Shown: positions 1,698 through 22,104 of the stretch, one piece after another
How the letters are laid out: each line of letters opens with the position of its first letter
Numbering within the stretch: position 1 is the first letter of the stretch
Source of the DNA: Bradyrhizobium guangzhouense
GTDB lineage: Bacteria; Pseudomonadota; Alphaproteobacteria; Rhizobiales; Xanthobacteraceae
Reading direction: 5' to 3'
DNA: 64,000 bases
Assembly (NCBI RefSeq): GCF_004114955.1
Contig: NZ_CP030053.1
Coordinates: 2,976,001 to 3,040,000 of the forward strand
Position numbers and translations under genes: made by a program
Notes under the pieces: generated by a model
The model's database searches: none
Told to the model about the DNA's origin: nothing
The model's input: only the letters and a program-made list of their open reading frames with translations

Positions 1698-1698
1698 T

Positions 1699-1796: not shown

Positions 1797-3446
1797 ATGC
1801 GCCGCGCGACAGCAGTCTTGCTGGCGCTGCTATTGGCCGCGCATGCGCCGATGCTGCTGAACGACGGCCTCTTCATGGACGATTGGCTGGTGCTCAAGGC
1901 CGGTCCGGGCTTCGTGATCGACATCGATTTCCTGCTCCACGGCGCAGGCCATCCGGTCTTCTACAGCTACGACGCGATCGCCAACTGGACCGGCGCGCCG
2001 ATTGCCGTGATGTTGTCGCTGGCGCTCGCCGGAATTGTCTTCGGCGCGACGTCTCTGGCGCTGGCTGCAACGCGGCTCGACCTGCTCGATCGCGCCGAGG
2101 CGGTCGGCTTCGCGCTGATGGTGTGGACTTATCCCGGCTATCAGCTCTGGGCGGGCAAGGCGAATGCGGTCTACGTGCTTAGCTTTGGACTCTTGTTCGT
2201 CGGGACCTTGCTGCTGACGCTGGCCTACGGCGCGCGCGGAGTGCGGTGCGCGTTGCTGCGCCTGGCCTGCGCGCTCGCGTTCCTTCTGGGGTTTGCGCTC
2301 AATTCGACGATCGTGCTCTATGCCTTTGTCGTGCTGGGCCTCTTCGTCGCAATATGGCTGCGCGGCGAGCCGACGCACGGCCTTGTCCGGCGCACCTGGC
2401 TGGCTGGCTGGTGCTGTGCCGGTCGCTATCCGGACCTGGTGATGCTTCCCCTGATTTATTGGGGCGCGCTCAACATCTGGTTCAAGCGTAGCGGCGTATA
2501 TGCGCAGTATTACAATGCCCATTTCCCGAGGCCCGGCGAATTGCTGAACGGCTGGGAGACATTTTTTCTCGCCGGCTACAGCGACGTTGCGCTTCACGCG
2601 ATCGAGGCCGCGGACGCGGTGCCAAAGCTCTTTATCGCAGCCGCGCTCCTGGTCGGGATTGCTTTGTTCCTGCTGCGCGCCGATATGAAAGCGACCGCGC
2701 CGCGATACGCCAGCCTCTTGCCGTTCGCGCTCGCCGTGGTCGTGTTCCTGGTATTGTCGCTGCCCTATCTGATCGCCGGCATTTCGCCGTCTTCGACGAA
2801 TTTCTACGAGAGCCGTCATCTTCTGATGTTTGGTCTGCCGTTGGCGCTGACGCTGCTTGCCATCAAGCGGGGAGCAGAGCGCTGGATTGGTCCGAGCGCT
2901 GCCATTGTCCTCGTGTTCGGATCGGGAGCGGTGCTGTCGATTGGCCTGCTATGGACCGACTACGCCTTCATGCAAGCCAGGACCCTGAAGCAACAGGCCT
3001 TGGCGCATCATCTCGCCCACCAGCCGCAGCCGGCGGCGACGGTCTTTGCACTCGATGACGGCTTCGTCGACTACCCGTCACGCCACACGAGCTTCGGCTT
3101 CACCGAGGTCACCGGCACCCTTCGCCTCGTCTGGGGCAATCAGCCCTTCCTGGGATTTGCCCTGCGCGCTGAACGGCCGACCGTCTTGCGAGAGGTGCAA
3201 GCGGCGCGGACTGGGCCGAACAGCGCCTTTGCTCACCTCGACCCGTCTGGGCCGCAGGCGACGATCTCGATGCAGCCGGGGCCGGCCGCGGCGCCCAATC
3301 TGGCTCTGGCCAGGAAATACTACACGTGCCGACTGTTGGCGCGTTGCGACGTCTCGCAATTGCTGGATCAACTCGCGCAGGTGAGCATCAAGGTGGGACC
3401 TATCGCCGGCATTCTGCCGCTCGAGGCTACGAAGCCTATCCGATGA
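1797..3446 (+). CDS. Polytopic membrane protein, possible GT-C glycosyltransferase
   Basis: About 549 residues from ATG at 1797; an earlier ATG at 1764 and a TTG at 1755 are in frame. The 1797 start puts MRRATAV directly before the first membrane helix, the usual positive-inside arrangement. There are roughly ten to twelve hydrophobic helices in the first 400 residues, then a periplasmic-looking C-terminal domain. An FMDDWLVL acidic pair follows helix 1, where GT-C enzymes that use polyprenyl-phosphate sugars carry their catalytic Asp. The gene is transcribed against the sugar operon and overlaps the Gfo/Idh gene by 11 bp at the 3' end. The GT-C assignment is tentative. Confidence 0.7.
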   Translation: MRRATAVLLALLLAAHAPMLLNDGLFMDDWLVLKAGPGFVIDIDFLLHGAGHPVFYSYDAIANWTGAPIAVMLSLALAGIVFGATSLALAATRLDLLDRAEAVGFALMVWTYPGYQLWAGKANAVYVLSFGLLFVGTLLLTLAYGARGVRCALLRLACALAFLLGFALNSTIVLYAFVVLGLFVAIWLRGEPTHGLVRRTWLAGWCCAGRYPDLVMLPLIYWGALNIWFKRSGVYAQYYNAHFPRPGELLNGWETFFLAGYSDVALHAIEAADAVPKLFIAAALLVGIALFLLRADMKATAPRYASLLPFALAVVVFLVLSLPYLIAGISPSSTNFYESRHLLMFGLPLALTLLAIKRGAERWIGPSAAIVLVFGSGAVLSIGLLWTDYAFMQARTLKQQALAHHLAHQPQPAATVFALDDGFVDYPSRHTSFGFTEVTGTLRLVWGNQPFLGFALRAERPTVLREVQAARTGPNSAFAHLDPSGPQATISMQPGPAAAPNLALARKYYTCRLLARCDVSQLLDQLAQVSIKVGPIAGILPLEATKPIR

Positions 3447-4470
3447 TGTTCCGCTTCCAGATCGTCTCCGCGAGGGCGATGTCTGCAATCGAATCCGCGC
3501 CAGAGGCCAGCGGCATTCGGCGTGCGGCAACGTCGGACACGAATGCATCGGCTTGACGGCGAAATGCCCAGCTGCTCTCGCGCGCCAGCCGTGTCCGATG
3601 ACCATCCTGATCGAGACTGATCTGCGCCTCGTCCTCGGCAAAGGGAGGGGGCAGTTCGATGGTGATGGCCCCGCGTTCGAAATCGATCGTCAGGCCTTCG
3701 CGCCAAGGCCCCTCGGATCCGTTCGCGAGCTCCAGCACGCAGGCGATGCCGTCGAAGTCGAGCGTAATGCGCGAGGCTGCCGAGAGGTCGATCTTGCTGT
3801 TGACGACGTCGGGCGAGGGCCCGAGCAGATAGCGCGTCAGATTGATGATGTGGCTGAAGACATTCAGGAAGACATCGTAGTCCGGTCGCATCGCGGCTGG
3901 CAGCCAGTCCGGCCCGTCCTGCCAGAGCTCAAGCCCGTCGGGGCGCGCCTCAGCGGTCATCACAAAGGTGTCGCGCGATCCCCCGGTGTTGCCGCCGAAG
4001 CACCAGCCGCGCGCACCGATGATACGTCCGAGCGACTGATCCGTCCGAAGGCGCGTCAGCTCGGCCAGCGCGCGGGCCACGCCGGCATCGTGACGCTTCA
4101 TGTAGCCGATCGCGTAGACGAGGCTCCGCCGCCGCGCGGCTTCGATCAGGGACGCAGCCTGGATCGTCGTATAGGCCATCGGCTTTTCCGACAATACGTG
4201 GCGGCCGCTGTCGAGTGCGTCCAGAACGATCGGGCCGGTCGCACGTCGCTTCGTCACGACCACGACGGCGGAGACCTCGCGATCCGCGAGCAACTCGTGA
4301 TGGGAGCCGTAGATCCGAGAGACGCCGAATTTCCGTGCAGCGGCGGCTGCGAGATCAGGCCGGAGATCAGCGATCGCGACGACACGACAGGCGGGATTGG
4401 CGGCGAAATTGGCAAGGTGGCACATCTGGCCGACCATGCCCGTTCCTATGATGCCAATGCCTGGCCTCAC
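3436..4470 (-). CDS. Gfo/Idh/MocA-family NAD(P)-dependent oxidoreductase
   Basis: 344 residues, starting at GTG with GGAG eight bases upstream. The N-terminal Rossmann domain has GTGMVG (residues 9-14), and EKP (95-97) marks the cofactor/substrate cleft. The rest is the usual alpha/beta dimer domain. The family oxidises or reduces sugar hydroxyls, often the 3-OH of an NDP-sugar or an inositol. It is the last gene of the long minus-strand sugar unit, three bases after the upstream methyltransferase. The likely role is making a keto-sugar used by an aminotransferase of the same cluster (inference from context). Confidence 0.88.
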   Translation of the reverse strand: MRPGIGIIGTGMVGQMCHLANFAANPACRVVAIADLRPDLAAAAARKFGVSRIYGSHHELLADREVSAVVVVTKRRATGPIVLDALDSGRHVLSEKPMAYTTIQAASLIEAARRRSLVYAIGYMKRHDAGVARALAELTRLRTDQSLGRIIGARGWCFGGNTGGSRDTFVMTAEARPDGLELWQDGPDWLPAAMRPDYDVFLNVFSHIINLTRYLLGPSPDVVNSKIDLSAASRITLDFDGIACVLELANGSEGPWREGLTIDFERGAITIELPPPFAEDEAQISLDQDGHRTRLARESSWAFRRQADAFVSDVAARRMPLASGADSIADIALAETIWKRNIIG

Positions 4471-4473
4471 GTG

Positions 4474-5679
4474 CTAGGCTCCATCCACGCGCTTCCGCAA
4501 GACGAGGAAATGCGCCGGCTGTCCCCAGGCGGTGAGGAACGCCTGGTCGGATTGGGTGAGGGCGGTGATCCCTGCCATATCCCGCTGCGCGATCGCGCTG
4601 AAGATATGGTGGAAGCTCTCGATCGTCGCTGCAAAAGCCTCGAGTTCGACCGCGTCGTCGGCAAGAATCTCGGTGTCTTGGATTGTCGCGCGCAGCGACG
4701 CGAGGCTCGCGATCACGCGAGGCAGGCTCTCGCCGAACGGATCGTCGATCATCCGATCGACATCGAGCACCAGCGCTTCGATCGAAGCCGAGATCGCGCT
4801 CACTGCTTCGGCCTTGCCGACCAGATAGAGCTTGCGTCCGCCGAGGAAGCTGAGGCGGCTGCGGCGAAGGTGGTGTATCGCGCGCAGCAGTTTCTCGTCG
4901 GCGGACAGGACTTTTTTGTGCCAGTAAACGTCAAGGCTGTCGCGGTAAGATGGCCACGCCGAATGGATATCGAATCCCTGACCGTGCGCCGCCGTGCACA
5001 AGGCCGCCGCGTCGAGGAAGTAGCGGTGCCGGACGAAGGGGTTCTCGAGCACGTCCATCAGCCACGATTCGAAGCTGCGGGTGTGCGGGATGCTGTCCCA
5101 CTTCGCTTCGAACAGCGCTTTCGCGGTTTCGAGAGCAGGTCGGCCTGTCAGCACCTTGCCGGCGGCGTGAATCGCCTTGAGTGCAAGTTCGAAGAAGCCG
5201 CCGTAGCGTTCGTAATAGGAAGTGACGGCGTAACCGCCAGGATTGAGCAGCCGGTGAAAGATGCCGAGCCAGTTTTCGGTCGGCTGCACCGTGTAGATGA
5301 ATCCTTCGGCATCGATGATGTCGAAGCGACGATCGCTGCGGAATCCCTCGACATCCGACGATACGAGCTCGCGCAGACGTGTCGTCTGGCTGAAATGCGC
5401 GAAGTAAGCCTGAATTTTCGCGTGCGCATGCCGGTTCGGCTCGGCGAGCGTCAAGCTGGCACCCCAACTGGAAAACACCAGGGCGTTCTCGCCGGAATCG
5501 GGCCCGAACTCCAGCACGTCGGCGTCGCGGAACAGGCGCGGCGGTAGCACCAGCTTGTCCGAAAACAACTCGCGCCGCTGGCCGGCATAGGCTTCGAGCT
5601 CGGCGGACGATTTGAAATTCCCGAACGTCGGCAGTACGTCCTGACGTTCGTAATAGTTGAAGAGCTTGTCCTCAGCCAT
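4474..5679 (-). CDS. SAM-dependent methyltransferase-like protein
   Basis: 401 residues from ATG at 5679, which overlaps the upstream stop by 8 bp and is preceded by AGGG; an upstream frame extension to 5739 lies inside the previous gene and was rejected. SAM motif I is VLEFGPDSGENA (residues 55-66) and a DIIDAEGF acidic loop follows. The last third (about 250-400) is an alpha-helical extension with no family I recognise. It probably acts on a sugar intermediate of this operon. The substrate is unknown. Confidence 0.75.
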   Translation of the reverse strand: MAEDKLFNYYERQDVLPTFGNFKSSAELEAYAGQRRELFSDKLVLPPRLFRDADVLEFGPDSGENALVFSSWGASLTLAEPNRHAHAKIQAYFAHFSQTTRLRELVSSDVEGFRSDRRFDIIDAEGFIYTVQPTENWLGIFHRLLNPGGYAVTSYYERYGGFFELALKAIHAAGKVLTGRPALETAKALFEAKWDSIPHTRSFESWLMDVLENPFVRHRYFLDAAALCTAAHGQGFDIHSAWPSYRDSLDVYWHKKVLSADEKLLRAIHHLRRSRLSFLGGRKLYLVGKAEAVSAISASIEALVLDVDRMIDDPFGESLPRVIASLASLRATIQDTEILADDAVELEAFAATIESFHHIFSAIAQRDMAGITALTQSDQAFLTAWGQPAHFLVLRKRVDGA

Positions 5680-6889
5680 GCAGCGACCCTGAGACCGCAT
5701 CGAGCCGGTCGAGCTCACTCCAGATGTCGGACGGCGCAAAGATCGAGACGATCTGGAGCGGACGTTTCAAATTCTCGCGCAGCCGGTTGCTGACCTTGTC
5801 TTCGTTCTCCTGGTTCACGGCGAGAAGACAAACCAGAGGAGCGGATCTGCCAGTGAGGTCTTCCGGCGAGCGGATCGGAATCCCGGTGCCGGGCAGGAAC
5901 AATCCCTGGCGCTCCTTCTGGTCGTCGACCGAGAGATCGACGAGCTCCGCAAGTTCGTGGGCATTCGTGAAGGTGCAAGCGCGGCAGCCGGCGCCGTAGA
6001 TTGCGATCTCGGCGCCGCTGGCGCGGGCCTTGGCCAGGATCGGGCGGAGACGAGCGCCGTACTCCCTCGCGCGCTGTCCGAATTTCTCGCCGACGCCGGC
6101 CGGCGCAGGCGGCGCTGTCACTGCGCCGACGGCACGGCGGGCAGCGATGGCGAGGCTGCCGCCACTGAAATTGTATTTCTTGACGGATACCGCCTCGAAG
6201 CCATGGCGCGCCAGCAGCGCGAGCAGCGTCGGTTCGGTGAAGTAGCTGACGTGCTCCTCCCAGAGGACCGAAAGGTCGCCCACCATGGAGCCGGGCGCGA
6301 AATCAGGCACGTCGATGAACAGCAGTCCGTCGTCGCTGAGCGCGATTTTCACACAGGCGAAGAAGTTCTCGAAATCGACGATGTGTTCCAGCACCTGGCG
6401 CGAGACCACGAGATCGAACTTGCCGGCTTGCGCGACCGCGTCGTGGGCCATCTCCGGGCTGAGCATATCGGCATAGACCTTGATGCCGCGCTCGCTGGCG
6501 ATCTTGCCCGACACCGGATTGGGCTCGACGCCAACCATGACCTTCGCGCCGCGCTCGCGCAGCCTGTCCATGAACAGGCCGTCGTTGCATCCGATCTCGA
6601 ACACGGATTGATGCTTCGAGAATTTCGCGATGGTATCGAGCTCATCGACCTGGTGCGGCTCCGGCTTCCAGCTGCTGAAATTGTAGTTGAACTGCCGGTA
6701 CAGAATGTCGGGGTCGATCGGCTTGACGATCTGGGGCAGGCCGCAATCGCCGCAGGCCAGCACCTCGAACGGATAGCGCTCGTCCTGCTCGTCCCTGCTG
6801 TGCCGGAGCCGATGGGCAATCGGCATCTGTCCGAGATCGATGACCGGACGCAGGTTCGTCGAGTGGCAAAGGCGGCAATGGTCGGTCAC
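5672..6889 (-). CDS. NDP-sugar C-methyltransferase (TylC3/NovU type)
   Basis: 405 residues, GTG start. The three-part layout is that of sugar C-methyltransferases: a zinc-binding N-terminal module with C5, C8, C46 and C49, a SAM-binding domain with VFEIGCNDG (96-104), and a C-terminal Rossmann-like domain with IAIYGAGCRACTF. Such enzymes add a branching methyl to a 4-keto or 3-keto NDP-sugar. A paralogue with the same layout lies at 20836. A 250-bp gap upstream containing a perfect palindrome suggests an internal control point. The exact carbon methylated cannot be read from the sequence. Confidence 0.87.
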   Translation of the reverse strand: MTDHCRLCHSTNLRPVIDLGQMPIAHRLRHSRDEQDERYPFEVLACGDCGLPQIVKPIDPDILYRQFNYNFSSWKPEPHQVDELDTIAKFSKHQSVFEIGCNDGLFMDRLRERGAKVMVGVEPNPVSGKIASERGIKVYADMLSPEMAHDAVAQAGKFDLVVSRQVLEHIVDFENFFACVKIALSDDGLLFIDVPDFAPGSMVGDLSVLWEEHVSYFTEPTLLALLARHGFEAVSVKKYNFSGGSLAIAARRAVGAVTAPPAPAGVGEKFGQRAREYGARLRPILAKARASGAEIAIYGAGCRACTFTNAHELAELVDLSVDDQKERQGLFLPGTGIPIRSPEDLTGRSAPLVCLLAVNQENEDKVSNRLRENLKRPLQIVSIFAPSDIWSELDRLDAVSGSLHG

Positions 6890-6965
6890 TGATTATTCTC
6901 GCATTTGGGCAGGCCTGACGAGGCGATTTTCAACGAAACTGGCAGGGCCGGCAATCGAGATGTTT

Positions 6966-7142: not shown

Positions 7143-7718
7143 CTATCTTTGCGTCAGCCAGTCCGCGGCGGTCGCACCAACCTTCGTGACGTAGTCGTGG
7201 ACCGCAGCGGCGTCGCTGCCATCCGGGGCCCAGTCGGGAAATGCCGTGCGGGATGGGTCAAACGGGCCGGCAGTGGTTTCGTGGAACACCAGCCATTCGG
7301 AGGTGATCAGGATCGAGTGGAACACCTGTTCGGGCATCCGGTAGTAGCAGCGCTTGCCATGGCCGTAAGGCGCCATTTCGAGCACGTCGCGAATCTGCCC
7401 GTCATCCTCGAAGATCACCACCTGTGCGGTGCCCTCGATGACGTGGAACGATTCCGGTTTGCCAAAATGCTTGTGGGGCCGGACATAGGCCTCGCGATGG
7501 TGCACGATCAGCATCTCGTGCAGACCGGACAAGGGATCGGGATGGGTGCAGAGCCGGCTGCGCAGGCGCGGGTTGCCGGCGGCGATGCGCTTCAGCTCCG
7601 CGATGGTGGCGTCGTCCGCGGTGACGATGGCATCGTCCGAATAATAGACTTCCGGATTTTGTGCGCGAAGCGAGGTTGACCGGCGCGGGCCCGCTTCATT
7701 CGAAGAAGATGAACCCAT
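7143..7718 (-). CDS. WbuC-family cupin metalloprotein
   Basis: 191 residues from ATG at 7718, preceded by GAGG at good spacing and overlapping the upstream stop by 23 bp. The double-stranded beta-helix carries a metal site PHKHFGKPESFH (residues 81-92: H82, H84, E89 and H92 as likely ligands). Small cupins of the WbuC type occur in O-antigen and capsule clusters; their reaction is not established. Its place between methyltransferases and the LIC12192-type gene fits a sugar-modifying or isomerising role. Confidence 0.8.
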   Translation of the reverse strand: MGSSSSNEAGPRRSTSLRAQNPEVYYSDDAIVTADDATIAELKRIAAGNPRLRSRLCTHPDPLSGLHEMLIVHHREAYVRPHKHFGKPESFHVIEGTAQVVIFEDDGQIRDVLEMAPYGHGKRCYYRMPEQVFHSILITSEWLVFHETTAGPFDPSRTAFPDWAPDGSDAAAVHDYVTKVGATAADWLTQR

Positions 7719-8361
7719 GGTCGCCTCGGTAGCCGCATTTGTCGTAGATCCAGGCCCACGTCTCCGGACCGTGGAAGCTCAGGCAGGTAAGCTGCCAATA
7801 GAGCAGGTTCGCCTTCTCGCGCTCGTTGCGGAACGATTCCACCATCAGATATTTCGAGGCGTCGCGTCCGACGCGCTCGATCTCCGATACGGCGCGGAAC
7901 ACGTCCTCGAGCGGAAGATTGTGCAGCACGCCGAGCGACACCACGAGATCGAAACTATGGTCGGGGTAGGGCAGTTCGACAGCGCTGCCGACCCTCAGCT
8001 GCGGCCGCACTTCCTCCTTGGCATTGGCGATGCCGTAGTCGGAAATGTCGATGCCTGCGATGGTGAGATCGGGCACAAGCTGGGTGAACTCGTAGAGTAG
8101 ATAGCCCTTGCCGCAGCCGACATCGAGCACGCTCATGCCGGGCTTGATGCCGTAGCGATCGATCAGGGTCTGCGCGAGCGGGCGCCAGCGTCCGTCATAG
8201 CGATAGCCGCCGTAGCCATAGCGGCGGTCCCCGTCCCAATAGTCGCGTCCCCATTGCCGCGCAACAGTCGCGGATTCCGCCTTGTCGTGCTCGACCACGC
8301 GCTGGACGTAGTCGCGCTTGGTCGACGCGTGCATCGGCTGGAGCAGGTTGATCTCGGTCAT
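7696..8361 (-). CDS. Class I SAM-dependent methyltransferase
   Basis: 221 residues from ATG at 8361 with GGGGA just upstream; a longer frame to 8481 has no support. Motif I is VLDVGCGKG (residues 78-86), followed by GIDISDYGI and a SFDLVVSLGVLHNLP motif IV-like segment. The tail after about 190 is short (YRGDHGFIFFE). This is a Methyltransf_11-type fold, third methyltransferase of the operon. A small-molecule sugar substrate is inferred from its neighbours. Confidence 0.87.
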   Translation of the reverse strand: MTEINLLQPMHASTKRDYVQRVVEHDKAESATVARQWGRDYWDGDRRYGYGGYRYDGRWRPLAQTLIDRYGIKPGMSVLDVGCGKGYLLYEFTQLVPDLTIAGIDISDYGIANAKEEVRPQLRVGSAVELPYPDHSFDLVVSLGVLHNLPLEDVFRAVSEIERVGRDASKYLMVESFRNEREKANLLYWQLTCLSFHGPETWAWIYDKCGYRGDHGFIFFE

Positions 8362-8386
8362 TGTCCCCAGCCGGTATGCAGCATCG

Positions 8387-8779
8387 TCACAGGATCGTCG
8401 CGTATTTGTTGACGAGCAGGATGTCCTCGACCGCCTGAATGCCCTCGCGCGAGGACAGCGTGATCTCCTCGACGGCTGCATGCAGGTCGCAGCCTTCGCG
8501 CAGCACGCGGTCGTAGATCTCCCGCCGCCGCGCCTCGTCGGCCGGCAACATGAAGATACTGTACAGGATCAGGCCATTCAGTCGGGGCAGTTCGTCGAGG
8601 ATGTCCTCGAGCACCATGTAGCTGCCCGGCATGATGTGCTCGGCGGCGCTCAGCAGATATTGCAGGTTCTTGCGCCGCGCGTAGTCGCGGATCACGATGT
8701 TCTGGACGTGCTGCGGGCTGCGGCTGCCGTTCAGCGGCCTGGCGCCGATGTAGCCGCGATGGCCGGCTCGTTCAGCCAT
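8387..8779 (-). CDS. Sporadic carbohydrate cluster protein, LIC12192 family
   Basis: 130 residues with a strong GGAGG ribosome site before ATG 8779, overlapping the previous stop by 8 bp. It has the short conserved blocks I associate with this family: GYIGARP near the start, PQHVQN, IRDYARRKNLQYLLS, and a GLILYSIFMLP strand. The family has no known biochemical function and is defined by its scattered presence in carbohydrate clusters, often beside the 2OG-Fe(II) oxygenase found here directly upstream. The assignment is from memory of the family pattern and should be confirmed by a TIGR04323 search. Confidence 0.75.
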   Translation of the reverse strand: MAERAGHRGYIGARPLNGSRSPQHVQNIVIRDYARRKNLQYLLSAAEHIMPGSYMVLEDILDELPRLNGLILYSIFMLPADEARRREIYDRVLREGCDLHAAVEEITLSSREGIQAVEDILLVNKYATIL

Positions 8780-9578
8780 GGAAGCCTCCGGGCAGCTTGT
8801 ATTGCATGCCGACGCGCGTCGCCGGACGCAGCAGGATCGGCTCGAAGAACTCCCCGAAGCGCTTGTCCGCGTAGGGCGACATGATGCTCTTGAAGCGGCA
8901 GTTCATGCTCCAGCGCGTGCCGGGCTCCTCGTTGACGCGATTGCCGTGCATCAGCGTCTGGTTGAACAGCATCACGTGACCGTAGGGAATCTCGATGAAG
9001 GTCGCGTGCGGCTTGATCGTCTTGTAGAGTTCTTCGGCGCTGCGCAGGCTTGCCATGCGGTCCTGCATCTCGCCGTTCAGGGAGGGCGGCAGCAGATACA
9101 TCGATTTGGTGCGCTGGACGTCGACAAGTGGCACCCACACCACGACCTCGAAGGGCGAGTCGCCCGACCAGACGTCGGAATGGGTGGCGAGCAGCGACGA
9201 GCTGTCGCCGGGAAGCTGGATACTGAGATTGACGCGGCGCTGCATGCACAGCTCGTTGCCGACGATGGTCTCGATCGTCGAGCGCGCCAGGCGGAAATAG
9301 GTCGGTCGGAACCACGGCTCGGCATTGAGGCCGTTGAAGACGTGCAGTCGCAGGCCGTTGAGATCGTCGACGCTCACCCGCGCGTGGATGCTGTCGAGCA
9401 TCGCATAGGGGTCGTTGCTGGGTGGCAGCTTCAGATAGTCGGCCGCGAGCTCGGCGGCGCGCCGCTGGATTCGATCGAGCCCGTTGCGGTCATCGGCCCG
9501 TGTGGTGACGAAGCCGTCGTCGATGAAACGCTGCGCCAGCGCCTGCTCGTCGGGTTGAAGGAAGTCCGTATCCATCAT
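8772..9578 (-). CDS. Sporadic carbohydrate cluster 2OG-Fe(II) oxygenase
   Basis: 268 residues. The start ATG at 9578 overlaps the aminotransferase stop (ATGA) and has GGGAG eight bases upstream. The jelly-roll iron site is readable: H133 and D135 in THSDVWSGD, H211 in LMHGNRV, and R223 as the 2-oxoglutarate anchor, as in phytanoyl-CoA dioxygenase-like enzymes. The expected reaction is hydroxylation or oxidative rearrangement of a sugar or sugar nucleotide, using O2 and 2-oxoglutarate in the cytosol. It is paired with the LIC12192-type gene downstream, as in other sporadic carbohydrate clusters. Confidence 0.82.
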   Translation of the reverse strand: MMDTDFLQPDEQALAQRFIDDGFVTTRADDRNGLDRIQRRAAELAADYLKLPPSNDPYAMLDSIHARVSVDDLNGLRLHVFNGLNAEPWFRPTYFRLARSTIETIVGNELCMQRRVNLSIQLPGDSSSLLATHSDVWSGDSPFEVVVWVPLVDVQRTKSMYLLPPSLNGEMQDRMASLRSAEELYKTIKPHATFIEIPYGHVMLFNQTLMHGNRVNEEPGTRWSMNCRFKSIMSPYADKRFGEFFEPILLRPATRVGMQYKLPGGFHG

Positions 9579-12757: not shown

Positions 12758-12767
12758 GGGCAGCCGA

Positions 12768-14628: not shown

Positions 14629-15245
14629 GCCGCAAATACCTCGCGGCGGATCTCGGCCCAAGTCGCGATCGGCTTGCACCGTGCGGGGCAGGGGCGCTGC
14701 GATCGCGTGAACAGGATCGAGCGCGTTGTCGTCGGGAAGTGCGGTTGCTCGAACACATCGACGAGATCGTCGATGAAGACATCGAGCTTCAGGCTTGCGA
14801 GCCGGTCGACCTTGCCGGCCTGCGTGTCCTCGAAATAGACGTCGCCTGCGGAAAGCGCCGCATCAGCAGTGTCGATCAAGCCTGCCCCTCGCAGCCAGCT
14901 GCGCGCGGCGTCGCGCAGGTCGGTGCGATCCGGATCCTGATGGCCGTAGCGGGTCTTGTGGCTGACGATGTAGACCTTCGCGCCGGCCAGGCTGCACGTA
15001 GCCAGAAATTCCTGCACGCCCGGATAGACTTCGGCGCCACCAATTCCCTTGCCGTAGACGAAGCCCTGCAGACCCTGCCAGGCAAGCTCGCCGCCCTCGC
15101 GGGATCGCAGGTGATCCCGTACCTCGTTCTTCAAACCGTCCCAGCCCTCCGGCACCAGCCCACGCTGACGCGCGACGGCGGCAAAAACCTTGTCGTAGCA
15201 GATGATCGTGTTGTCGAAGTCGATGCCGATCCGCACGCCGCTCAC
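14625..15245 (-). CDS. HAD-superfamily hydrolase-like protein
   Basis: About 206 residues. GTG at 15245 overlaps the epimerase stop (GTGA); GTG at 15236 is equally possible. The frame extends upstream to 15782 only inside the epimerase gene and was not used. HAD motif I is IDFDNT with D9 and D11, motif II is in IVSHKT, and acidic FIDDLVD is motif IV-like. It probably dephosphorylates a sugar phosphate, filling the place that GmhB has in heptose synthesis, although it is not a close GmhB look-alike by eye. Confidence 0.8.
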   Translation of the reverse strand: MSGVRIGIDFDNTIICYDKVFAAVARQRGLVPEGWDGLKNEVRDHLRSREGGELAWQGLQGFVYGKGIGGAEVYPGVQEFLATCSLAGAKVYIVSHKTRYGHQDPDRTDLRDAARSWLRGAGLIDTADAALSAGDVYFEDTQAGKVDRLASLKLDVFIDDLVDVFEQPHFPTTTRSILFTRSQRPCPARCKPIATWAEIRREVFAA

Positions 15246-16243: not shown

Positions 16244-16269
16244 TGCCGTTCTCCAGATCTTCGTTTGCG

Positions 16270-17835
16270 CTACTTCAACAACGCCGTCACGAACTTGACC
16301 AGCGGCGCCTTTTCGACCGAGTTGCGATGACCGACAATGCCGACCTTGATCGCGCCCGCCGCATTGCCAATGAAGGCGACGTCCTCGATATTGCCGCCGG
16401 CCGCCACCAATGGGGCCGTAATCGTCAGGAAGGCGTCGCCCGCGCCGACGGTGTCGACGACGGTCTTGGTGAAAGCGGGAACGCGCGCGACGCCGGTCTT
16501 CGCCGAGAAGGGATAACAGCCGAAGGATCCGTGCGTGATGATCATGTTATCGCAGTCGATCTTGCGGTGCAGGCCGTTCTCGATCACGGAAGCGATGTCG
16601 CTGAACTTGTCGGTGGCGGCCAGGCGCGCTTCCGGCGCGTCGATGCAGATGTAGTCGGCCCGCGGATATTTCGTGACGAGATTGTAGCCGTGATTTCCGC
16701 TGTTGCTCTGGGCGTTGACAGCCAGGAACTTGGAATTCGCGATCAGCGTGTCGATGGTGGTGGAGGCGATCATGCCGTGTCCGAAATCGGTGACGATGAC
16801 GACGTCAGCGCCGCGGATACGTTCCGCGGTGACTCTGTCGATCTCTTCCCGCTGCTCCTCGCCGACCGGCGTGTCGTCCATGGTGTAGACTTCGAACAAT
16901 TTGTGCAGATAGCCGAGTTCGACGTAGCGGAGCTTGCGGGTGGTCGGTCGGTTCTCGACGCGAATCGGCGTCAGCGTGACGTTCGGGCGGATATGGGCGC
17001 GCAGGAAGGCTTCGGGATAGTCGTCGCCGCCGAGCGTCGTGACGATCTCGACCGACTTGCAGAAGCTCGCGACGTGGTTCGCAGCGGCGATCACCCCGCC
17101 GGCAAACTGCTCCCGGTTCTTGAACAGGGTCGCGACGATGTTCTCCTTGGATGCCTTTCCGAGAGCCGAGACGTACTGGTATTCGTCGATGATGGTGTCT
17201 CCGACCAGCACGACGTGCATGTCCTGCATCTTGTCGATCAGCTTCAGGAGGCGTTCGGCGCCGCCGCCTTCGCGCACCTTCTGGAGGTAGTCGCGCAGAG
17301 GGGGATCGTAGATGTCGAAGTAGCGGTTGAGCAGCGTCGACGAGCTGAAGGTCACGTCGCGCGTGAAGACGATCCGCCCGCCATGGCGCTCGACGGTCTC
17401 GCGTTCGGTGGCGATCTTGCCGGTGACGTCATCCTCCGGATTTTCGTAGTCCGAGCCCTTGACGTAGATATCGGGGCGCACGGTATCGAGGATGGGCTCG
17501 GCGCTCGAGGTCTGGTTGATGCCGACCCAGTCGACGGTGCCGAGCGCGGCGAGCATCTCGGCGCGCATGTTCTCCGGAAAGATCGGCCGGCCCGGACCCT
17601 TGTTGACGTGGCGGTCGGCGGTGACCGTCACCATGACGACGTCGGCTTCCTTGCGCGCCGCTTGAACGTGGCGGACGTGACCGAGATGCACGAGATCGAA
17701 CACGCCGTGGCACAGCGCGACGGTCTTGCCTTGCGCTTGCGCTGTCCGCGCGATCTCACCGAGCTCCTCGATCGTCTTGATTTTCTCGTGCGGCGCCGGA
17801 TGGCCGTTCGGTTTGTTTGTCGGAGCAGTGCTCAT
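16270..17835 (-). CDS. Fused sugar nucleotidyltransferase / PfkB-type kinase (HldE-like, domains reversed)
   Basis: 521 residues. The N-terminal half (about 38-175) is a cytidylyltransferase-like domain with HGVFDLVHLGH (HxGH at 50-53) and a late SSST motif. The C-terminal half (about 205-521) is a PfkB/ribokinase-type kinase with GD near the start and GAGDAF (464-469) carrying the catalytic base. HldE, the heptose kinase/adenylyltransferase, has the same two domains in the opposite order (kinase first). Expected product: an ADP- or other NDP-activated heptose-like sugar made in the cytosol. Position 2 of the operon, with a SIS isomerase divergently next door, supports this. Confidence 0.88.
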   Translation of the reverse strand: MSTAPTNKPNGHPAPHEKIKTIEELGEIARTAQAQGKTVALCHGVFDLVHLGHVRHVQAARKEADVVMVTVTADRHVNKGPGRPIFPENMRAEMLAALGTVDWVGINQTSSAEPILDTVRPDIYVKGSDYENPEDDVTGKIATERETVERHGGRIVFTRDVTFSSSTLLNRYFDIYDPPLRDYLQKVREGGGAERLLKLIDKMQDMHVVLVGDTIIDEYQYVSALGKASKENIVATLFKNREQFAGGVIAAANHVASFCKSVEIVTTLGGDDYPEAFLRAHIRPNVTLTPIRVENRPTTRKLRYVELGYLHKLFEVYTMDDTPVGEEQREEIDRVTAERIRGADVVIVTDFGHGMIASTTIDTLIANSKFLAVNAQSNSGNHGYNLVTKYPRADYICIDAPEARLAATDKFSDIASVIENGLHRKIDCDNMIITHGSFGCYPFSAKTGVARVPAFTKTVVDTVGAGDAFLTITAPLVAAGGNIEDVAFIGNAAGAIKVGIVGHRNSVEKAPLVKFVTALLK

Positions 17836-17922
17836 CTAAATCATCCAAAGCGCCGATCGGTCTTTGGTGACCGGCGGGCTTGATCGGTTGGCGGCAATCC
17901 CATCAAGTGCGAATGAAACGGC

Positions 17923-18951
17923 TCAACCGCTTGCTTCTTGCGGCTTGCCGGGCGCCGCGCCACTGTCGTCACCCAGATATTTGAACCAGTCCTTGGTGGC
18001 ATCCGCAATCTTGTCGACAGTCCACAGCGGGGCGTCCTTGTACTGGTCCATCGATGTCAGCATCGTCGCGACGCCTTCCTCGAACTTCACCTTCGGCGTC
18101 CATTTCAACACCCGCTTGATCTTGGTGATGTCGGCATAAGTGCAGTCGGGCTCGCCGGGCCGCTTCGGAATGTGGACCTTGTCGCCACCAAGCAACTCGA
18201 CCAGCCGGTTCACGCTGTAGGTGTTGTCCGAGCCGACGTTAAAGACCTCGTGCGAGATGTCGGAGCGTGCGGCAGTCACGAAGGCATCAGCGACATCGCT
18301 GACGAAGGTAAAATCACGCGTCTGCTCGCCGTCGCCGACAACGGTGAACGGCTTGCCGGCGAGCTTCTGCGCCATGAAGACACCGAACACGGCGCCGTAC
18401 GTTCCGGTGGTGCGGTGGCGCGGCCCGTAGACGTTGAACAGACGCAGCGCTACGGCCGGCAGCTTGTAGACTTGGCACCAGTGCATGACGCACTGCTCAC
18501 CGAGATTCTTGGTAAGCGCGTAGGGGTACATCGGCCTGATATCGGCTCCCTCCGGCGTCGGATAGACGTCGGGAATGCCGTAGCAGGACGATGACGCTGC
18601 GTAGACGAAGCGGCGAACGCCGGCGTGACGCGCCGCCTCGAGGACGTTGACAGTGCCGTCGACATTGGCGCGGTGATAGGGGATCGGCGACTCAATCGAG
18701 GGAACGATATCGGCCAATGCTGCCAGGTGGAACACCCAGTCGATACCGGAGAAATACGGCCTGATCTGCTCGAGGTCGGTGACATCGGCGCGGACCACTT
18801 TCAACCGGCTTGATGTGGCGCGCGAAGCCAGGTTCTCGGGCCGCCCGATGACGAAATTATCGAGCGCGATGACCTCATGGCCGTCATCGAGAAGGCGATC
18901 GACAAGATGACTTCCGATGAAGCCGGCGCCGCCAGTTACGATGCATTTCAT
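17923..18951 (-). CDS. NAD-dependent epimerase/dehydratase (extended SDR) 2, GalE-like
   Basis: 342 residues from ATG 18951 (MKCIVTGG); in-frame ATG 18960 would add three residues, and the frame further upstream has no start signal. NAD site GGAGFIG (7-13), S121/S122 and Y144/K148 (PYALTK). FNVYGPRH and GDGEQTRDF resemble UDP-glucose and UDP-GlcNAc 4-epimerases. The first gene of the minus-strand sugar operon; a TATAAT box lies about 100 bp upstream. Substrate remains open. Confidence 0.92.
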   Translation of the reverse strand: MKCIVTGGAGFIGSHLVDRLLDDGHEVIALDNFVIGRPENLASRATSSRLKVVRADVTDLEQIRPYFSGIDWVFHLAALADIVPSIESPIPYHRANVDGTVNVLEAARHAGVRRFVYAASSSCYGIPDVYPTPEGADIRPMYPYALTKNLGEQCVMHWCQVYKLPAVALRLFNVYGPRHRTTGTYGAVFGVFMAQKLAGKPFTVVGDGEQTRDFTFVSDVADAFVTAARSDISHEVFNVGSDNTYSVNRLVELLGGDKVHIPKRPGEPDCTYADITKIKRVLKWTPKVKFEEGVATMLTSMDQYKDAPLWTVDKIADATKDWFKYLGDDSGAAPGKPQEASG

Positions 18952-19091: not shown

Positions 19092-19697
19092 ATGTCGAGC
19101 CGTCAATCCATGCCCGTCGAGCCCGTCGATCCCGAGCACAAGGCGTTCCTCGTCGACTACATGGGGCGCCTGCATCGTGCGACCGCGGTCGATGATGGTG
19201 TCTTCGCCAAGATCGCCGCGACCCGCGCCATCTGGCTGCGCGCGCGAGAGCAGGGCGGGCGTGTGATCTTCATCGGCAATGGCGGCTCCGCCGGCATAGC
19301 CTCGCACCTTGCGATCGATCTGGCGAAGAATGCTTCGGTGCCGGCGCACTGCTTCAGCGACGCAAGCATGATGTCGTGTCTCGCCAACGACTACGGCTTC
19401 GAGGACTGGCTGGCGCATGCGGTGCGCCTCAGCGCGCGCGCCGGCGACTGTCTCGTGGCGATCAGTTCGTCCGGACGCTCCAAGAACATTCTCAATGCGG
19501 TCGCGCAGGCGCGGGCGATGAAGCTCGACGTCGTCACGCTTTCGGGCATGAACGCGGACAATCCGCTGCGCGGTCTCGGCGACGTCAATTTCTGGGTCGA
19601 CAGCCGCAGCTACAACATCGTGGAGACCGCGCACCAGTTCTGGATGATGGCCGCGATCGACCTCATCATCGGTCGCGCTGAATATCCGGCGTCCTGA
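19092..19697 (+). CDS. SIS-domain phosphoheptose isomerase-like protein (GmhA-like)
   Basis: 201 residues from ATG 19092 (alternative ATG 19110). The SIS fold is clear: GNGGSAGIASH (62-72) binds the sugar phosphate and ISSSGRSKNI is the second SIS signature, with VETAHQ near the end as in GmhA. GmhA converts sedoheptulose 7-phosphate to D-glycero-D-manno-heptose 7-phosphate. With a transketolase and an HldE-like fusion in the divergent operon, this is the natural entry step of a heptose-type pathway. It lies in a three-gene plus-strand set with the next membrane protein. Confidence 0.88.
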   Translation: MSSRQSMPVEPVDPEHKAFLVDYMGRLHRATAVDDGVFAKIAATRAIWLRAREQGGRVIFIGNGGSAGIASHLAIDLAKNASVPAHCFSDASMMSCLANDYGFEDWLAHAVRLSARAGDCLVAISSSGRSKNILNAVAQARAMKLDVVTLSGMNADNPLRGLGDVNFWVDSRSYNIVETAHQFWMMAAIDLIIGRAEYPAS

Positions 19698-19709
19698 GGC
19701 GAGAGGTTG

Positions 19710-20750
19710 ATGCAATCGCGGTTCAAGCAGGCTATCCTGTTCTCGGTGAAGCTGCTGCTTTCGATCGCGGTGCTGGCCTACATCGCCCGCGGTCTGAACC
19801 TGCGTCAGCTGCGCATGCATCTCCTCTCGGTTGATCCAGCCATGTTCGTCCTGGCGCTGGTCTTGATCTTCTCTCAGACCTTCGTCCTCAACGGCCGCTG
19901 GGAACTGATCATGCGTGCGCTTGGCGTGTCGCTGGATTGGCTCGCCGGTTGGCGGATCCTCATGATCAGCATGTGGTTCAATCAGGTGCTTCCGTCATCG
20001 GTCGGCGGCGATGCTGTGCGGATGTGGTTGCTGCGGCAGCGTGGCGTGCAATGGCCGGAGGCGGTCAAGGGTGTGGCGGCGGATCGCTTCACGGCTTTGA
20101 TCGGGTTGATAGCATTGATGGTGGTGGGGCTGCCCGTGCTGATGTTGCGGGTGTCCAATCAGGCTGCAATCCTGGCGATTGGCGCGCTGACGGTCGCGGG
20201 CGTGGCCGGCACCCTGGTGTTGTTGACGCTCGATCGGCTGCCGAAGCGGCTGATTGCACTGCCCGCGATCGCAAGCTTCGTTCGCTTCGGCGCGCTCGTC
20301 CGGTTTCTTCTGTTGCAGTTTGAACGTCGCGGAGCCTTGTTCGGTTCGGCGCTGCTGATTCATCTCGTGACCGCTGCGGCCTGTTATGCCCTGGCGCGCG
20401 GTGTCGGAGCGCAGCTCTCGCCGCTGGAGGCCGGCATCCTGATTCCGCCCGTGGTATTGCTGACCGCCGTACCGATCTCGATCAGCGGCTGGGGGGTTCG
20501 CGAGGGCGCCATGGTTGCCTGTCTCGGGCTTGCCGGCGTGCCGTCCGAGCAGGCGCTGTCGGTCTCGCTGCTGCTGGGTGCCATCAGCGTGCTCATCGGG
20601 CTCGTGGGTGGCGTGATCTGGCTGGCCAGCCCGGAGCGCGGTTCGTATTCTGCCGACAAGGCCGCCAAAGCTGCTAACGACAATGCCGTGGCCGACGCAT
20701 CACCGGGTTTCGGACCAGGGCAGGGCGAGCAAGCGTCGAGTCATCCATGA
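19710..20750 (+). CDS. Integral membrane protein, lysylphosphatidylglycerol synthase TM-region family
   Basis: 346 residues from ATG 19710, with GAGAGG a few bases upstream; the TTG at 19707 was rejected. About eight membrane helices and the family block MWFNQVLPSSVGGDAVR, plus SISGWGVREG, identify the UPF0104/LPG_synthase_TM family. Members without the soluble synthase domain are often found in glycan and lipid clusters; a flippase role is often proposed but unproven. It sits 12 bp after the SIS isomerase and is probably co-transcribed. The tail after about 310 is polar. Confidence 0.85.
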   Translation: MQSRFKQAILFSVKLLLSIAVLAYIARGLNLRQLRMHLLSVDPAMFVLALVLIFSQTFVLNGRWELIMRALGVSLDWLAGWRILMISMWFNQVLPSSVGGDAVRMWLLRQRGVQWPEAVKGVAADRFTALIGLIALMVVGLPVLMLRVSNQAAILAIGALTVAGVAGTLVLLTLDRLPKRLIALPAIASFVRFGALVRFLLLQFERRGALFGSALLIHLVTAAACYALARGVGAQLSPLEAGILIPPVVLLTAVPISISGWGVREGAMVACLGLAGVPSEQALSVSLLLGAISVLIGLVGGVIWLASPERGSYSADKAAKAANDNAVADASPGFGPGQGEQASSHP

Positions 20751-20835
20751 CCCGCTTGAACCCGTCGCCATCGATCTGGTCTTCGCAGGGTGAGATTGCC
20801 TCACTCGTTCGTATGTCTCGTTTTCCGGTTCAATC

Positions 20836-22104
20836 ATGAAAAACCTGTTCTACGTCCGTCACACCTGCCGCCTGTGTCATTCGGACAAGCAAGAGCTGGT
20901 GGTCCCGATGGCCGGCATGCCGATCGGAACGCCGAACTTCCAGGTCCCGAATGCCAGTGTCGACGATCCGGTGTTTCGCGCGGCGGTTCCGATGGCGTTG
21001 CATCTTTGCCGGGACTGCGGCCACCTCCAGATTCTTCATGTCGGGAATCCAGAGGTTCAGTACCGCAACTATGTCTATACCACCTCGCTCTCGCTCGGCC
21101 TGCGCGAGCATTTCGCGGGCTACGCCAATGACGTCCTGAACCGCTTTGCGATTCCGCCGGGCTCGCTGGTCGTCGAGCTCGGGAGCAACGACGGATCGCT
21201 GCTCGGCTTCTTCAAAGAGCGCGGCATGCGGGTGCTGGGAGTCGATCCTGCCGTCGACATCGCGCGGCGCGCGACGGAAGCGGGCATCGAAACCATCGGC
21301 GATTTCTTCACCGACACCATTGGCCAGCGCATCCTGAAGAGCCATGGCGCGGCCAGCGTCGTGATTGCCAACAACATGATCGCCAATGTCGACGATCTCG
21401 ATCCACTGGTGATCGGGGTTCGCGACGTGCTGGCGCCGGACGGACTGTTCGTGTTCGAGACGCAATACGGTGTTGACGTCACCGAGAAGAACCTGCTCGA
21501 TACCGTCTATCACGAGCATCTGTCGTATTTTAACATCAAGCCGCTGACGCGCTTCTTCGCACGGCTCGGGATGGAGTTGATCGACGTCCAGCACATCTGG
21601 ACCAAGGGCGGCTCGATCCGCGTGACGGTTCAGCGCGCGGGGGGCGCCAAGAAACCGTCGGCGGAAGTCGCCCGCTTCATCGCCGAGGAGGACCGGCTCG
21701 GCGTCGATCAGCCGGCCTATTACGCGCCCTACGTCAAGAGAATCGCAGCCATCCGCGACGAGCTGGTCGCGATGGCCGATGCCGCCCATGCGCGCGGTCA
21801 ATTGGTTGCGGGCTACGGCGTTTCGGTCGGCACCACGACGCTGCTGCCGCAGTTCGGCCTGGAGAACAAGATCGACTTCCTGGTGGACGACGATCCCAAG
21901 AAGGGGAACGTGATGGCGGGCCCAGGGTACGACATCCCGATCCTGCCCCCCGCCGCGCTCTATGAGCGCAAGCCGGCGTTCGTCGTCGTCTTCGCCTGGC
22001 GCTATGTGGACCCGATCCGGGCCAAGCACGCCCGCTATTTCGCCGAGGGCGGAAAGTTCGTCGTGCCGCTGCCGGGCATTTCCAAGGTCGATAGTGCCGT
22101 CTGA
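20836..22104 (+). CDS. NDP-sugar C-methyltransferase (TylC3/NovU type), second copy
   Basis: 422 residues. N-terminal zinc module with C11, C14, C58 and C61, SAM-binding VVELGSNDG (112-120), YHEHLSYF in the middle, and a C-terminal Rossmann-like domain with GYGVSVGTTTLL. The same architecture occurs at 5672, but the two differ widely in sequence, so they are unlikely to be a recent duplication. It should add a methyl branch to a keto-sugar nucleotide. It closes the plus-strand side of the sugar region, 85 bp after the flippase-like gene. Confidence 0.88.
   Translation: MKNLFYVRHTCRLCHSDKQELVVPMAGMPIGTPNFQVPNASVDDPVFRAAVPMALHLCRDCGHLQILHVGNPEVQYRNYVYTTSLSLGLREHFAGYANDVLNRFAIPPGSLVVELGSNDGSLLGFFKERGMRVLGVDPAVDIARRATEAGIETIGDFFTDTIGQRILKSHGAASVVIANNMIANVDDLDPLVIGVRDVLAPDGLFVFETQYGVDVTEKNLLDTVYHEHLSYFNIKPLTRFFARLGMELIDVQHIWTKGGSIRVTVQRAGGAKKPSAEVARFIAEEDRLGVDQPAYYAPYVKRIAAIRDELVAMADAAHARGQLVAGYGVSVGTTTLLPQFGLENKIDFLVDDDPKKGNVMAGPGYDIPILPPAALYERKPAFVVVFAWRYVDPIRAKHARYFAEGGKFVVPLPGISKVDSAV

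What the first reader, a model, noticed from the sequence alone, without database searches (positions are those of the whole stretch)
3436..22104. A compact pathway for an unusual, possibly C2-extended or heptose-derived glycan sugar
Seen: sixteen minus-strand genes with overlaps or tiny gaps at most junctions, plus a divergent SIS isomerase. Known: transketolase makes sedoheptulose phosphate; GmhA-like isomerase, HldE-like kinase/nucleotidyltransferase and a phosphatase make NDP-heptose. Inference: the operon makes a NDP-heptose or a C2-extended sugar and then oxidises, aminates and C-methylates it. A link to odd rhizobial O-antigen sugars such as bradyrhizose, whose biosynthesis I do not know to be solved, is possible but speculative (bradyrhizose has no amino group, whereas two aminotransferases are present).
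Basis: partly seen in the sequence, partly recalled or inferred. Interest (0 to 1): 0.85.

Follow-up and report, generated by a model that had tools for sequence, protein, structure and literature searches.

The report
Operon for a branched unusual sugar
A 16-gene Bradyrhizobium operon most likely builds an activated seven-carbon-type sugar and then grafts a two-carbon branch onto it with a transketolase, a step that has been guessed for some antibiotics but not shown for a bacterial glycan sugar.

Summary
In detail: 16 minus-strand genes (3436-18951), tightly packed, with a divergent SIS-domain gene (19092-19697), in a Bradyrhizobium-type genome. Ten of them plus SIS recur as a module in other bacteria. 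Two are NCBI's uncharacterised 'sporadic carbohydrate cluster' families (TIGR04323, TIGR04324), so the cluster type was flagged before but not explained. The two aminotransferases are accessory; bradyrhizose is not supported. My main result is a swap. In related clusters a split pyruvate-dehydrogenase-E1-like pair replaces the HAD-kinase-transketolase block: 36 versus 6 of 51 loci, never both; 21 versus 8 of 35 genomes, never both. A pyruvate-type enzyme could hardly supply a precursor for anomeric activation, so the thiamine-diphosphate step probably acts after nucleotide activation and adds a C2 branch to a keto-sugar. Epi2, dehydrogenase-like, likewise never coincides with one radical-SAM subfamily. 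The transketolase lacks two substrate-pocket residues in 88 of 88 loci, although another split paralogue in this genome lacks them too. TIGR04323 has a serine-recombinase fold without a conserved catalytic serine. A phage-like contig carries much of the pathway. The product is undetermined and every reaction is inferred.

The parts
3436..4470 (-). Gfo/Idh/MocA-type oxidoreductase (accessory)
   Evidence: PF01408 1.6e-20; found in 6 of 40 diverse loci
4474..5679 (-). Methyltransf_23 methyltransferase (accessory)
   Evidence: PF13489; 3 of 40 diverse loci
5672..6889 (-). C-methyltransferase-like (Methyltransf_13/23/14; accessory)
   Evidence: PF08421, PF13489, PF08484
7143..7718 (-). WbuC-family cupin (accessory)
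   Evidence: TIGR04366 132.8 bits, cut-off 42
7696..8361 (-). MT11: class I methyltransferase, core
   Evidence: PF08241 2.6e-19; found in 38 of 40 diverse loci
8387..8779 (-). TIGR04323 (LIC12192 family) protein, core; serine-recombinase catalytic-domain fold without a conserved catalytic Ser
8772..9578 (-). TIGR04324 2OG-Fe(II) oxygenase, core
9575..10693 (-). DegT2 aminotransferase (accessory)
   Evidence: PF01041 5.3e-107; Lys of the HPLKN motif in 50 of 51 loci
10683..11789 (-). DegT1 aminotransferase (accessory)
   Evidence: PF01041 3.4e-102; nearest solved 3uwc 5.8e-114
11798..12757 (-). TKC: split transketolase, pyrimidine and C-terminal domains
   Evidence: PF02779, PF02780; nearest solved is split transketolase 6yaj; G100 and L108 in 88 of 88 loci
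12768..13667 (-). TKN: split transketolase, ThDP domain (start uncertain)
   Evidence: PF00456 3.4e-50
13591..14628 (-). APH-type small-molecule kinase; travels with the transketolase
   Evidence: PF01636 1.8e-9; in 38 of 46 TKC loci and none of 6 E1 loci
14625..15236 (-). small HAD-type phosphatase; travels with the transketolase
   Evidence: DFDNT motif Asp residues in 80 of 81 loci; PF00702 0.013 only; fused to APH in L088 and L115
15242..16243 (-). Epi2: extended SDR, likely C4 dehydrogenase
   Evidence: PF01370; nearest solved 6vo6 2.3e-39; YxxxK in 80 of 81 loci
16270..17835 (-). NTkin: nucleotidyltransferase + PfkB kinase, HldE domains in inverted order
   Evidence: PF01467 and PF00294; HldE models matched below cut-off; PTTRK-R motif shared with the genome's own HldE-like protein
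17923..18951 (-). Epi1: GalE/HldD-like extended SDR
   Evidence: PF01370 1.3e-61; YxxxK in 75 of 75 loci
19092..19697 (+). SIS: divergent GmhA-like isomerase homologue, GmhA site residues altered
   Evidence: TIGR00441 84.6 bits, cut-off 209.45; alignments
19707..20750 (+). LPG_synthase_TM flippase-like membrane protein
   Evidence: PF03706 3.1e-46
20836..22104 (+). C-methyltransferase-like (Methyltransf_13/23/14)
   Evidence: PF08484 1.1e-43

Best explanation
The operon makes a nucleotide-activated, C2-branched higher sugar for a glycan. Step 1 (inferred): a heptose phosphate is phosphorylated at C1 and converted to an NDP-sugar by NTkin, in the manner of HldE. In this genus the isomerisation before it is probably done by a separate GmhA. 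Step 2: Epi1 epimerises and Epi2 oxidises the NDP-sugar to a keto-sugar. Step 3: the split transketolase TKN/TKC transfers a hydroxyacetyl (C2) unit onto the ketone, giving a tertiary-alcohol branch, so a heptose would become a nonose. APH and HAD act only in the transketolase version, perhaps on the extra CH2OH of that branch. Step 4: the 2OG oxygenase, the TIGR04323 protein and MT11 tailor the product; in this genus DegT1/DegT2, C-methyltransferases, the Gfo/Idh enzyme and the cupin modify it further. Shown here: gene identities, conservation, co-occurrence and swaps, motif states, two fold assignments. Inferred: every reaction, the heptose starting point and the glycan destination.
For: (1) ThDP swap. 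In six related loci a split PDH-E1-like pair (or, at a contig end, one half of it) replaces the transketolase; where Epi2 is also present (L192, L193, L194, L202) it lies 0-39 bases from Epi2. Of 51 loci with NTkin, 36 have TKC, 6 have E1, 0 both, 9 neither in the stretch held (26 of the 65 loci examined had been picked by TKC or NTkin status). In a sample of 150 genomes not picked for it, 35 have NTkin: 21 with TKC, 8 with E1, 0 both, 6 neither (chance of zero overlap 1.3e-4, not corrected for phylogeny). Families f92 and f107 of that sample hold NTkin genomes of both kinds. A pyruvate-type donor acting before activation would give a 1-deoxy-ketose that NTkin could not activate at C1 (reasoning). 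(2) Oxidation swap: Epi2 (36 loci) and a SPASM radical-SAM subfamily (6 loci: the query locus L102 and five at 62-72% identity) never coincide; 9 loci have neither. (3) TKC has Gly and Leu where three transketolase-like proteins of this genome have the His and Asp of the substrate pocket, 88 of 88 loci, many closely related, while catalytic Glu and two Arg are kept. (4) Epi2's nearest solved structure is 6vo6, recalled as Campylobacter Cj1427, which oxidises an NDP-heptose. (5) NTkin keeps HldE motifs. (6) Co-occurrence: TIGR04323 in 52, TKC in 53, shared 52 of 195 genomes of the genus. (7) Precedents: E1-like pairs (aKADH2) branch keto-sugars with C2, and split transketolases are proposed to do so in miharamycin and amipurimycin (PMC12247030, passages and section 2.3 read).
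Against: No biochemistry. HAD and APH travelling with the transketolase would also fit phosphorylated substrates made before activation. The exclusions rest on small, related samples and on thresholds I set. Other, more distant radical-SAM genes (22-33% identity) do occur in loci with Epi2. Nine NTkin loci and 6 of 35 NTkin genomes show no ThDP pair at my thresholds; two of those six (G673, G727) do have a diverged TKN/TKC beside NTkin and one (G606) an E1-alpha fragment. The altered pocket is not unique to the cluster: another split transketolase-like paralogue in this genome (L131) also lacks the His and Asp, whereas the solved split enzyme 6yaj keeps them. Epi1 and SIS were found in only 19 and 20 of 40 diverse loci, and the presence of SIS where it occurs suggests a ketose-phosphate intermediate. 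Pocket residue roles and the Cj1427 function are recalled. A transketolase that transfers C2 to a ketone has not been reported in vitro (review).
Confidence: 0.5

Rival explanations
1. The transketolase works first: it makes a heptulose or octulose phosphate, SIS isomerises it, NTkin and HAD turn it into an NDP-heptose or NDP-octose, and the rest oxidise, aminate and methylate it.
For: GmhA-like, HldE-like and HAD proteins sit together. HAD and APH each occur in 38 of 46 TKC loci. 21 of 23 TKC genomes have NTkin.
Against: NTkin occurs with an E1-like pair in place of transketolase, which is not expected to make an aldose-forming ketose. The transketolase pocket differs from housekeeping ones in 88 of 88 loci. 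The SIS proteins of this genus lack residues that GmhA uses, and sedoheptulose 7-phosphate should not need a dedicated transketolase (general knowledge).
Confidence: 0.25
2. The ThDP enzymes, APH and HAD build a separate small building block (for example a C2-extended acyl, cyclitol or amino unit) that is later attached to an NDP-sugar made by Epi1/NTkin/Epi2.
For: The HAD-APH-TK block and the NTkin block are separable in order and distance. In 6 genomes whose 2OG locus shows no transketolase, the cluster-type TKC lies outside the stretch held; for some of them this may still be the same contig.
Against: TKC or E1 is found with NTkin in 29 of 35 genomes. The slot directly beside Epi2 is shared by the two ThDP types.
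Confidence: 0.15
3. The operon makes bradyrhizose.
For: Same genus; C-C bond-forming enzymes present.
Against: A different 11-gene gdh cluster syntenic in six photosynthetic strains is implicated (PMC4743980).
Confidence: 0.02

Closest known systems
NCBI 'sporadic carbohydrate cluster' families TIGR04323 and TIGR04324
   Same: Both are present, adjacent and far above cut-off.
   Different: They are family labels only. No paper in the held library contains the searched terms 'sporadic carbohydrate cluster', TIGR04323, TIGR04324, SpoChoClust or LIC12192; pathway logic, swaps and fold are added here.
aKADH2 (split PDH-E1-like) C2-branching of keto-sugars in antibiotics such as kibdelomycin and trioxacarcin
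   Same: ThDP enzyme, C2 branch, and sometimes transamination of the branch ketone (PMC12247030, passages).
   Different: Here the E1-like pair was seen only in relatives; the window has a split transketolase in that slot, and the sugar base looks heptose-like.
Proposed split-transketolase branching in miharamycin and amipurimycin
   Same: Split-gene transketolase proposed to add hydroxyacetyl to a keto-sugar (PMC12247030 section 2.3).
   Different: Those are Streptomyces natural products, unproven; here it is a conserved cluster of Gram-negative bacteria with an HldE-like NDP-sugar core.
YerE-type branching (yersiniose and similar LPS sugars)
   Same: ThDP-dependent branch on an NDP-keto-sugar in a surface glycan (PMC12247030, passages).
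   Different: YerE is a decarboxylase-family enzyme; the Pfam scan of the operon genes showed no such protein.
Campylobacter capsular heptose modification (Cj1427 and neighbours, recalled)
   Same: Epi2's nearest solved structure is 6vo6 (identity as Cj1427 recalled).
   Different: No ThDP enzyme and a different nucleotidyltransferase type, as recalled.

Membership tests
NCBI sporadic carbohydrate cluster (TIGR04323/TIGR04324) | Both models matched above curated cut-off | tested here: met
   165.9 bits vs 55; 341.6 vs 150
Serine recombinase | Catalytic-domain fold | tested here: met
Serine recombinase | Conserved nucleophilic Ser after the first strand | tested here: not met
   No invariant or nearly invariant Ser in residues 1-40 of 22 aligned proteins; Arg14 invariant in that loop. 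Position judged from secondary structure, not from a residue-level superposition
Serine recombinase | Detectable sequence homology to Resolvase (PF00239) | tested here: inconclusive
   No PF00239 match in 22 members at E up to 10; hhalign against small recombinase alignments found nothing
GmhA sedoheptulose-7-phosphate isomerase | NCBIfam equivalog cut-off | tested here: not met
   84.6 bits vs 209.45
GmhA sedoheptulose-7-phosphate isomerase | GmhA site residues His, Glu, Gln, His (positions recalled) | tested here: not met
   His kept; Glu is Asp in 62 of 62 loci; Gln is Val in 19 of 19 that reach it; second His is Met in the window and in 8 of 8 fetched genomes of the genus, while the 17 loci read at that position have His
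HldE | NCBIfam equivalog cut-off and kinase-then-transferase order | tested here: not met
   161.9 bits vs 521; domain order inverted
Housekeeping transketolase | Substrate-pocket His and Asp (TktA 461 and 469, numbers recalled) | tested here: not met
   Gly100 and Leu108 in 88 of 88 loci; three own-genome proteins (L134-L136) have His and Asp, one other split paralogue (L131) does not
Fe(II)/2OG oxygenase (PhyH type) | Fold and HxD...H facial triad | tested here: met
ThDP-dependent keto-sugar branching pathway | C2 transfer to an NDP-keto-sugar | not testable with these tools
   Inferred from swaps only
Bradyrhizose cluster | 11-gene gdh cluster syntenic in six photosynthetic strains | tested here: inconclusive
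   None of those strains is among the 44 close named loci (capped list); gene lists were not compared

The most novel reading that the evidence does not exclude
A widespread, horizontally portable pathway, also carried by phage-like contigs, makes C2-branched heptose (nonose-type) sugars. Two unrelated oxidation enzymes (an SDR or a radical-SAM protein) and two kinds of split thiamine enzyme (transketolase or PDH-E1-like) are interchangeable, and one tailoring step is catalysed by a former serine recombinase fold that has become a sugar enzyme.
Probability: 0.35. Interest if true: 0.85.

Novelty: new variant of a known kind. Interest (0 to 1): 0.65.

Why it matters
A 2025 review says that transketolases using a ketone as acceptor have not been characterised in vitro and that its 13 candidates all come from Streptomycetes (PMC12247030 section 2.3). 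This operon and its relatives would give many candidates from Gram-negative bacteria, with a natural control (the E1-like version) and an obvious acceptor (the Epi2 product). It would also give the first functional hypothesis I know of for the TIGR04323 and TIGR04324 proteins, and a defined gene set to link to an unknown glycan sugar.

Tried and rejected
Bradyrhizose was considered and set aside (see rivals). SIS as a working GmhA in this window was set aside because of the altered residues. I first assumed that the aminotransferases belong to the core; neighbourhoods showed that they are accessory. Sequence homology between TIGR04323 and resolvases could not be shown; one search failed because my motif filter found no recombinase and hhalign had no template, and one search used a poor two-sequence template with a script error in one part. 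The TIGR04324 oxygenase has no relative in the PDB by sequence, only by fold. I looked for a lipoyl E2 beside the E1-like pairs and found no lipoyl motif in six loci; this is a motif scan, not a family search. A search for the phage-contig copy of the oxygenase in 50,697 annotated phage records found nothing; the 34 records with transketolase matches are all below 60% identity. Leptospira members implied by the family name LIC12192 were not retrieved.

Rows dropped or limits set: one search kept the best 80 of 241 relatives. L088 was dropped from the cupin/CMT_b gap count. Thresholds for calling TKC (1e-100), NTkin (1e-100), the E1-like subunit (the 12 genomes at 50% identity or more; 5 weaker ones at 41-46% left out) and radical SAM (40%) were chosen by me from gaps in the score lists. 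G736 (TIGR04323 below cut-off) was left out of the co-occurrence set. G126 (TKC at a contig edge) is the one genus genome with TKC and no TIGR04323.


Full report
What is there. Its nearest named relatives for this locus are Bradyrhizobium (44 Bradyrhizobium-type loci at 84-96% identity in the oxygenase), so I treat the host as Bradyrhizobium-type. Sixteen minus-strand genes run from Epi1 (18951) down to the Gfo/Idh gene (3436), with 13 of 15 junctions at 26 bases or less or overlapping. Divergently, on the plus strand, lie SIS, a flippase-like membrane protein and a C-methyltransferase-like gene, followed by a reading frame that I take for secE (not tested), nusG, ribosomal protein genes L1 and L10, and rpoB and rpoC. 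Seven of 8 fetched genomes of the genus keep the SIS-flippase-methyltransferase-secE/nusG order; the eighth keeps the first three genes but shows no secE/nusG match in its stretch.

Families. Pfam and NCBIfam give an SDR (Epi1), an inverted HldE-like nucleotidyltransferase-kinase (NTkin), a second SDR (Epi2), a small HAD protein (weak), an APH-type kinase, a split transketolase, two DegT aminotransferases, a 2OG-Fe(II) oxygenase (TIGR04324), a TIGR04323 protein, a methyltransferase (MT11), a WbuC cupin, two more methyltransferases and a Gfo/Idh enzyme. TIGR04323 and TIGR04324 are NCBI's 'sporadic carbohydrate cluster' models, so the cluster type was already flagged. No paper in the held library contains the terms I searched for them. 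The cluster is indeed sporadic: TIGR04324 is above cut-off in 7 of 398 genomes of the phylum sample.

Core and accessories. I used the oxygenase to fetch 80 named loci, the best of 241, and mapped all window genes onto them. In 40 diverse loci (all found through the oxygenase) the counts are 2OG 40, TIGR04323 40, MT11 38, TKC 32, TKN 31, NTkin 30, HAD 27, APH 27, Epi2 25, SIS 20, Epi1 19, cupin 10, DegT2 8, DegT1 6, Gfo/Idh 6, CMT_a 4, CMT_b 4, MT23 3 (some loci are cut by contig ends). The DegT pair is accessory: both are found in 8 of the 65 loci examined (L089, L094, L113, L181, L184, L192, L193, L202). HAD and APH are fused in two loci.

Co-occurrence. In 195 genomes of the genus, TIGR04323 is found in 52 and cluster-type TKC in 53; 52 are shared, and the extra one lies at a contig edge. 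In 150 genomes of another order, NTkin is in 35, TKC in 23 and TIGR04323 above cut-off in 10. All 10 have TKC, 9 of the 10 have NTkin, and 21 of the 23 TKC genomes have NTkin. The sets are therefore largely nested: NTkin is the widest, the transketolase is narrower, TIGR04323 narrower still. In 10 genomes picked through loci, 9 have a cluster-type TKC even when it is not in the stretch held around the oxygenase; the exception is the one behind L095, Thalassobaculum.

The swap. I then fetched 13 TKC-positive loci without TIGR04323 and 13 NTkin loci whose genomes (in one case, another contig) gave no TKC at 1e-100. In L192, L193 and L202 the position of the transketolase, between Epi2 and DegT1, holds a dehydrogenase-E1-type pair: PF00676, then PF02779 plus PF02780, with PDH E1 models matched below cut-off. 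Across 65 loci, 51 have NTkin: 36 with TKC, 6 with the E1 pair or part of it (L192-L196, L202), none with both, 9 with neither in the stretch held. In the 150-genome set, 12 genomes carry the E1-like alpha subunit at 50% identity or more. Eight of these have NTkin and none has TKC. Families f92 and f107 contain NTkin genomes of both kinds; f25 has both ThDP kinds, but its E1 genome has no NTkin at my threshold. Of the six NTkin genomes with neither, two (G673, G727) have a diverged transketolase pair beside NTkin and one (G606) an E1-alpha fragment. HAD and APH each occur in 38 of 46 TKC loci and in none of the 6 E1 loci. No lipoyl motif was found in the six E1 loci.

What the swap means. A pyruvate-type C2 donor acting before activation would make a 1-deoxy-ketose, which an HldE-like anomeric kinase could not activate. 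The simplest common role is carboligation to a keto-sugar after activation: acetyl from the E1 pair, hydroxyacetyl from the transketolase. A review describes exactly these two enzyme classes as known (aKADH2) or proposed (split transketolase) makers of C2-branched sugars in antibiotics, and says that the transketolase case is unproven and its candidates are all from Streptomycetes (PMC12247030; I read section 2.3 and search passages). Two further results fit. Epi2's nearest solved structure is 6vo6, which I recall as Cj1427, an NDP-heptose C4 dehydrogenase. Epi2 (36 loci) is also never found with a radical-SAM/SPASM subfamily (6 loci: the query locus and five at 62-72% identity), while 9 loci have neither (Fisher 2.8e-4, not corrected for phylogeny). 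Against this, other and more distant radical-SAM genes do occur in loci with Epi2.

Active sites. TKC keeps the catalytic Glu (87 of 87 read) and two Arg (87 of 87 and 88 of 88), but has Gly100 and Leu108 in 88 of 88 loci, many of them closely related, where three transketolase-like proteins of the same genome (L134-L136) have His and Asp (residue roles recalled). This is weaker than it looks: another split paralogue of unknown role in the genome (L131) also lacks both, although the solved split enzyme 6yaj keeps them. NTkin shares the PTTRK-R and GAGD motifs with the genome's own HldE-like protein. SIS has Asp for the GmhA Glu in 62 of 62 loci. In the window and 8 fetched genomes of the genus it also lacks the second His, which the 17 loci read at that position keep. 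So the SIS of this genus is probably not an ordinary GmhA, and heptose phosphate may come from a second GmhA-like protein of the genome, which keeps those residues.

Bradyrhizose. A published screen linked bradyrhizose to an 11-gene cluster with gdh, syntenic in six photosynthetic strains; its authors do not exclude polar effects (PMC4743980, passages and section 15). This operon was not seen in those strains among the loci retrieved (capped list, and their presence in the collection was not checked). The link is not supported.

Destination. Unknown. Three relatives (L097, L108, L126) have flagellin genes nearby, and L098, L108 and L120 carry a TPR-GT41 glycosyltransferase, so a protein glycan is as likely as LPS in those lineages.

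Judgement. I give 0.5 to the C2-branched heptose-type reading, 0.25 to the transketolase-first reading, 0.15 to a separate building block and 0.02 to bradyrhizose. The remainder covers readings that I have not thought of.

Noticed in passing
L027:3900-14657 and L028 (IMG/VR contigs, two metagenomes): A phage-like contig with DnaB helicase, terminase and SU10-type portal genes carries Epi1, a stand-alone nucleotidyltransferase domain, SIS, Epi2, TKN, TKC, 2OG, TIGR04323 and MT11, plus a PfkB kinase gene beyond the terminase. The two contigs are 99.98% identical over 16 kb; HAD and APH were not found there.
   Followed up: partly
L232, L233, L241 (IMG/VR contigs): Further putative viral contigs carry NTkin plus TKN/TKC, with Epi2 in L233 and radical-SAM genes in L232 and L241. 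Phage hallmark genes were not checked there.
   Followed up: partly
window 6890-7142: The 253-base gap between cupin and CMT_b is a variable slot in the genus: gaps of 38 to 5932 bases, with a flippase-like gene in 24 of 39 loci (L088 left out).
   Followed up: partly
L088:1525-9639: In B. japonicum SZCCT0153 the stretch holds diverged TKC (55%), TKN (64%) and a HAD-APH fusion on the opposite strand, with no usual copies seen.
   Followed up: no
L097, L108, L126: Flagellin genes lie within 10 kb of the oxygenase gene, and a TPR-GT41 glycosyltransferase was confirmed in L108 (also L098, L120).
   Followed up: partly
window 24526-25509: A D-2-hydroxyacid dehydrogenase gene sits between the L1 and L10 ribosomal-protein genes; it is also next to rplA in 7 of 8 fetched genomes.
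   Followed up: no
window 1755-3446: A 563-aa membrane-type protein with no Pfam match ends beside the operon; the flank 1-3436 has matches in 10 of 44 Bradyrhizobium-type loci, many of which end before it.
   Followed up: no
L098:12527-13408 and relatives: An RmlD-like reductase gene family accompanies the cluster in 21 of 37 non-Bradyrhizobium loci (Pfam of one member); I saw no counterpart among the window's operon genes.
   Followed up: no
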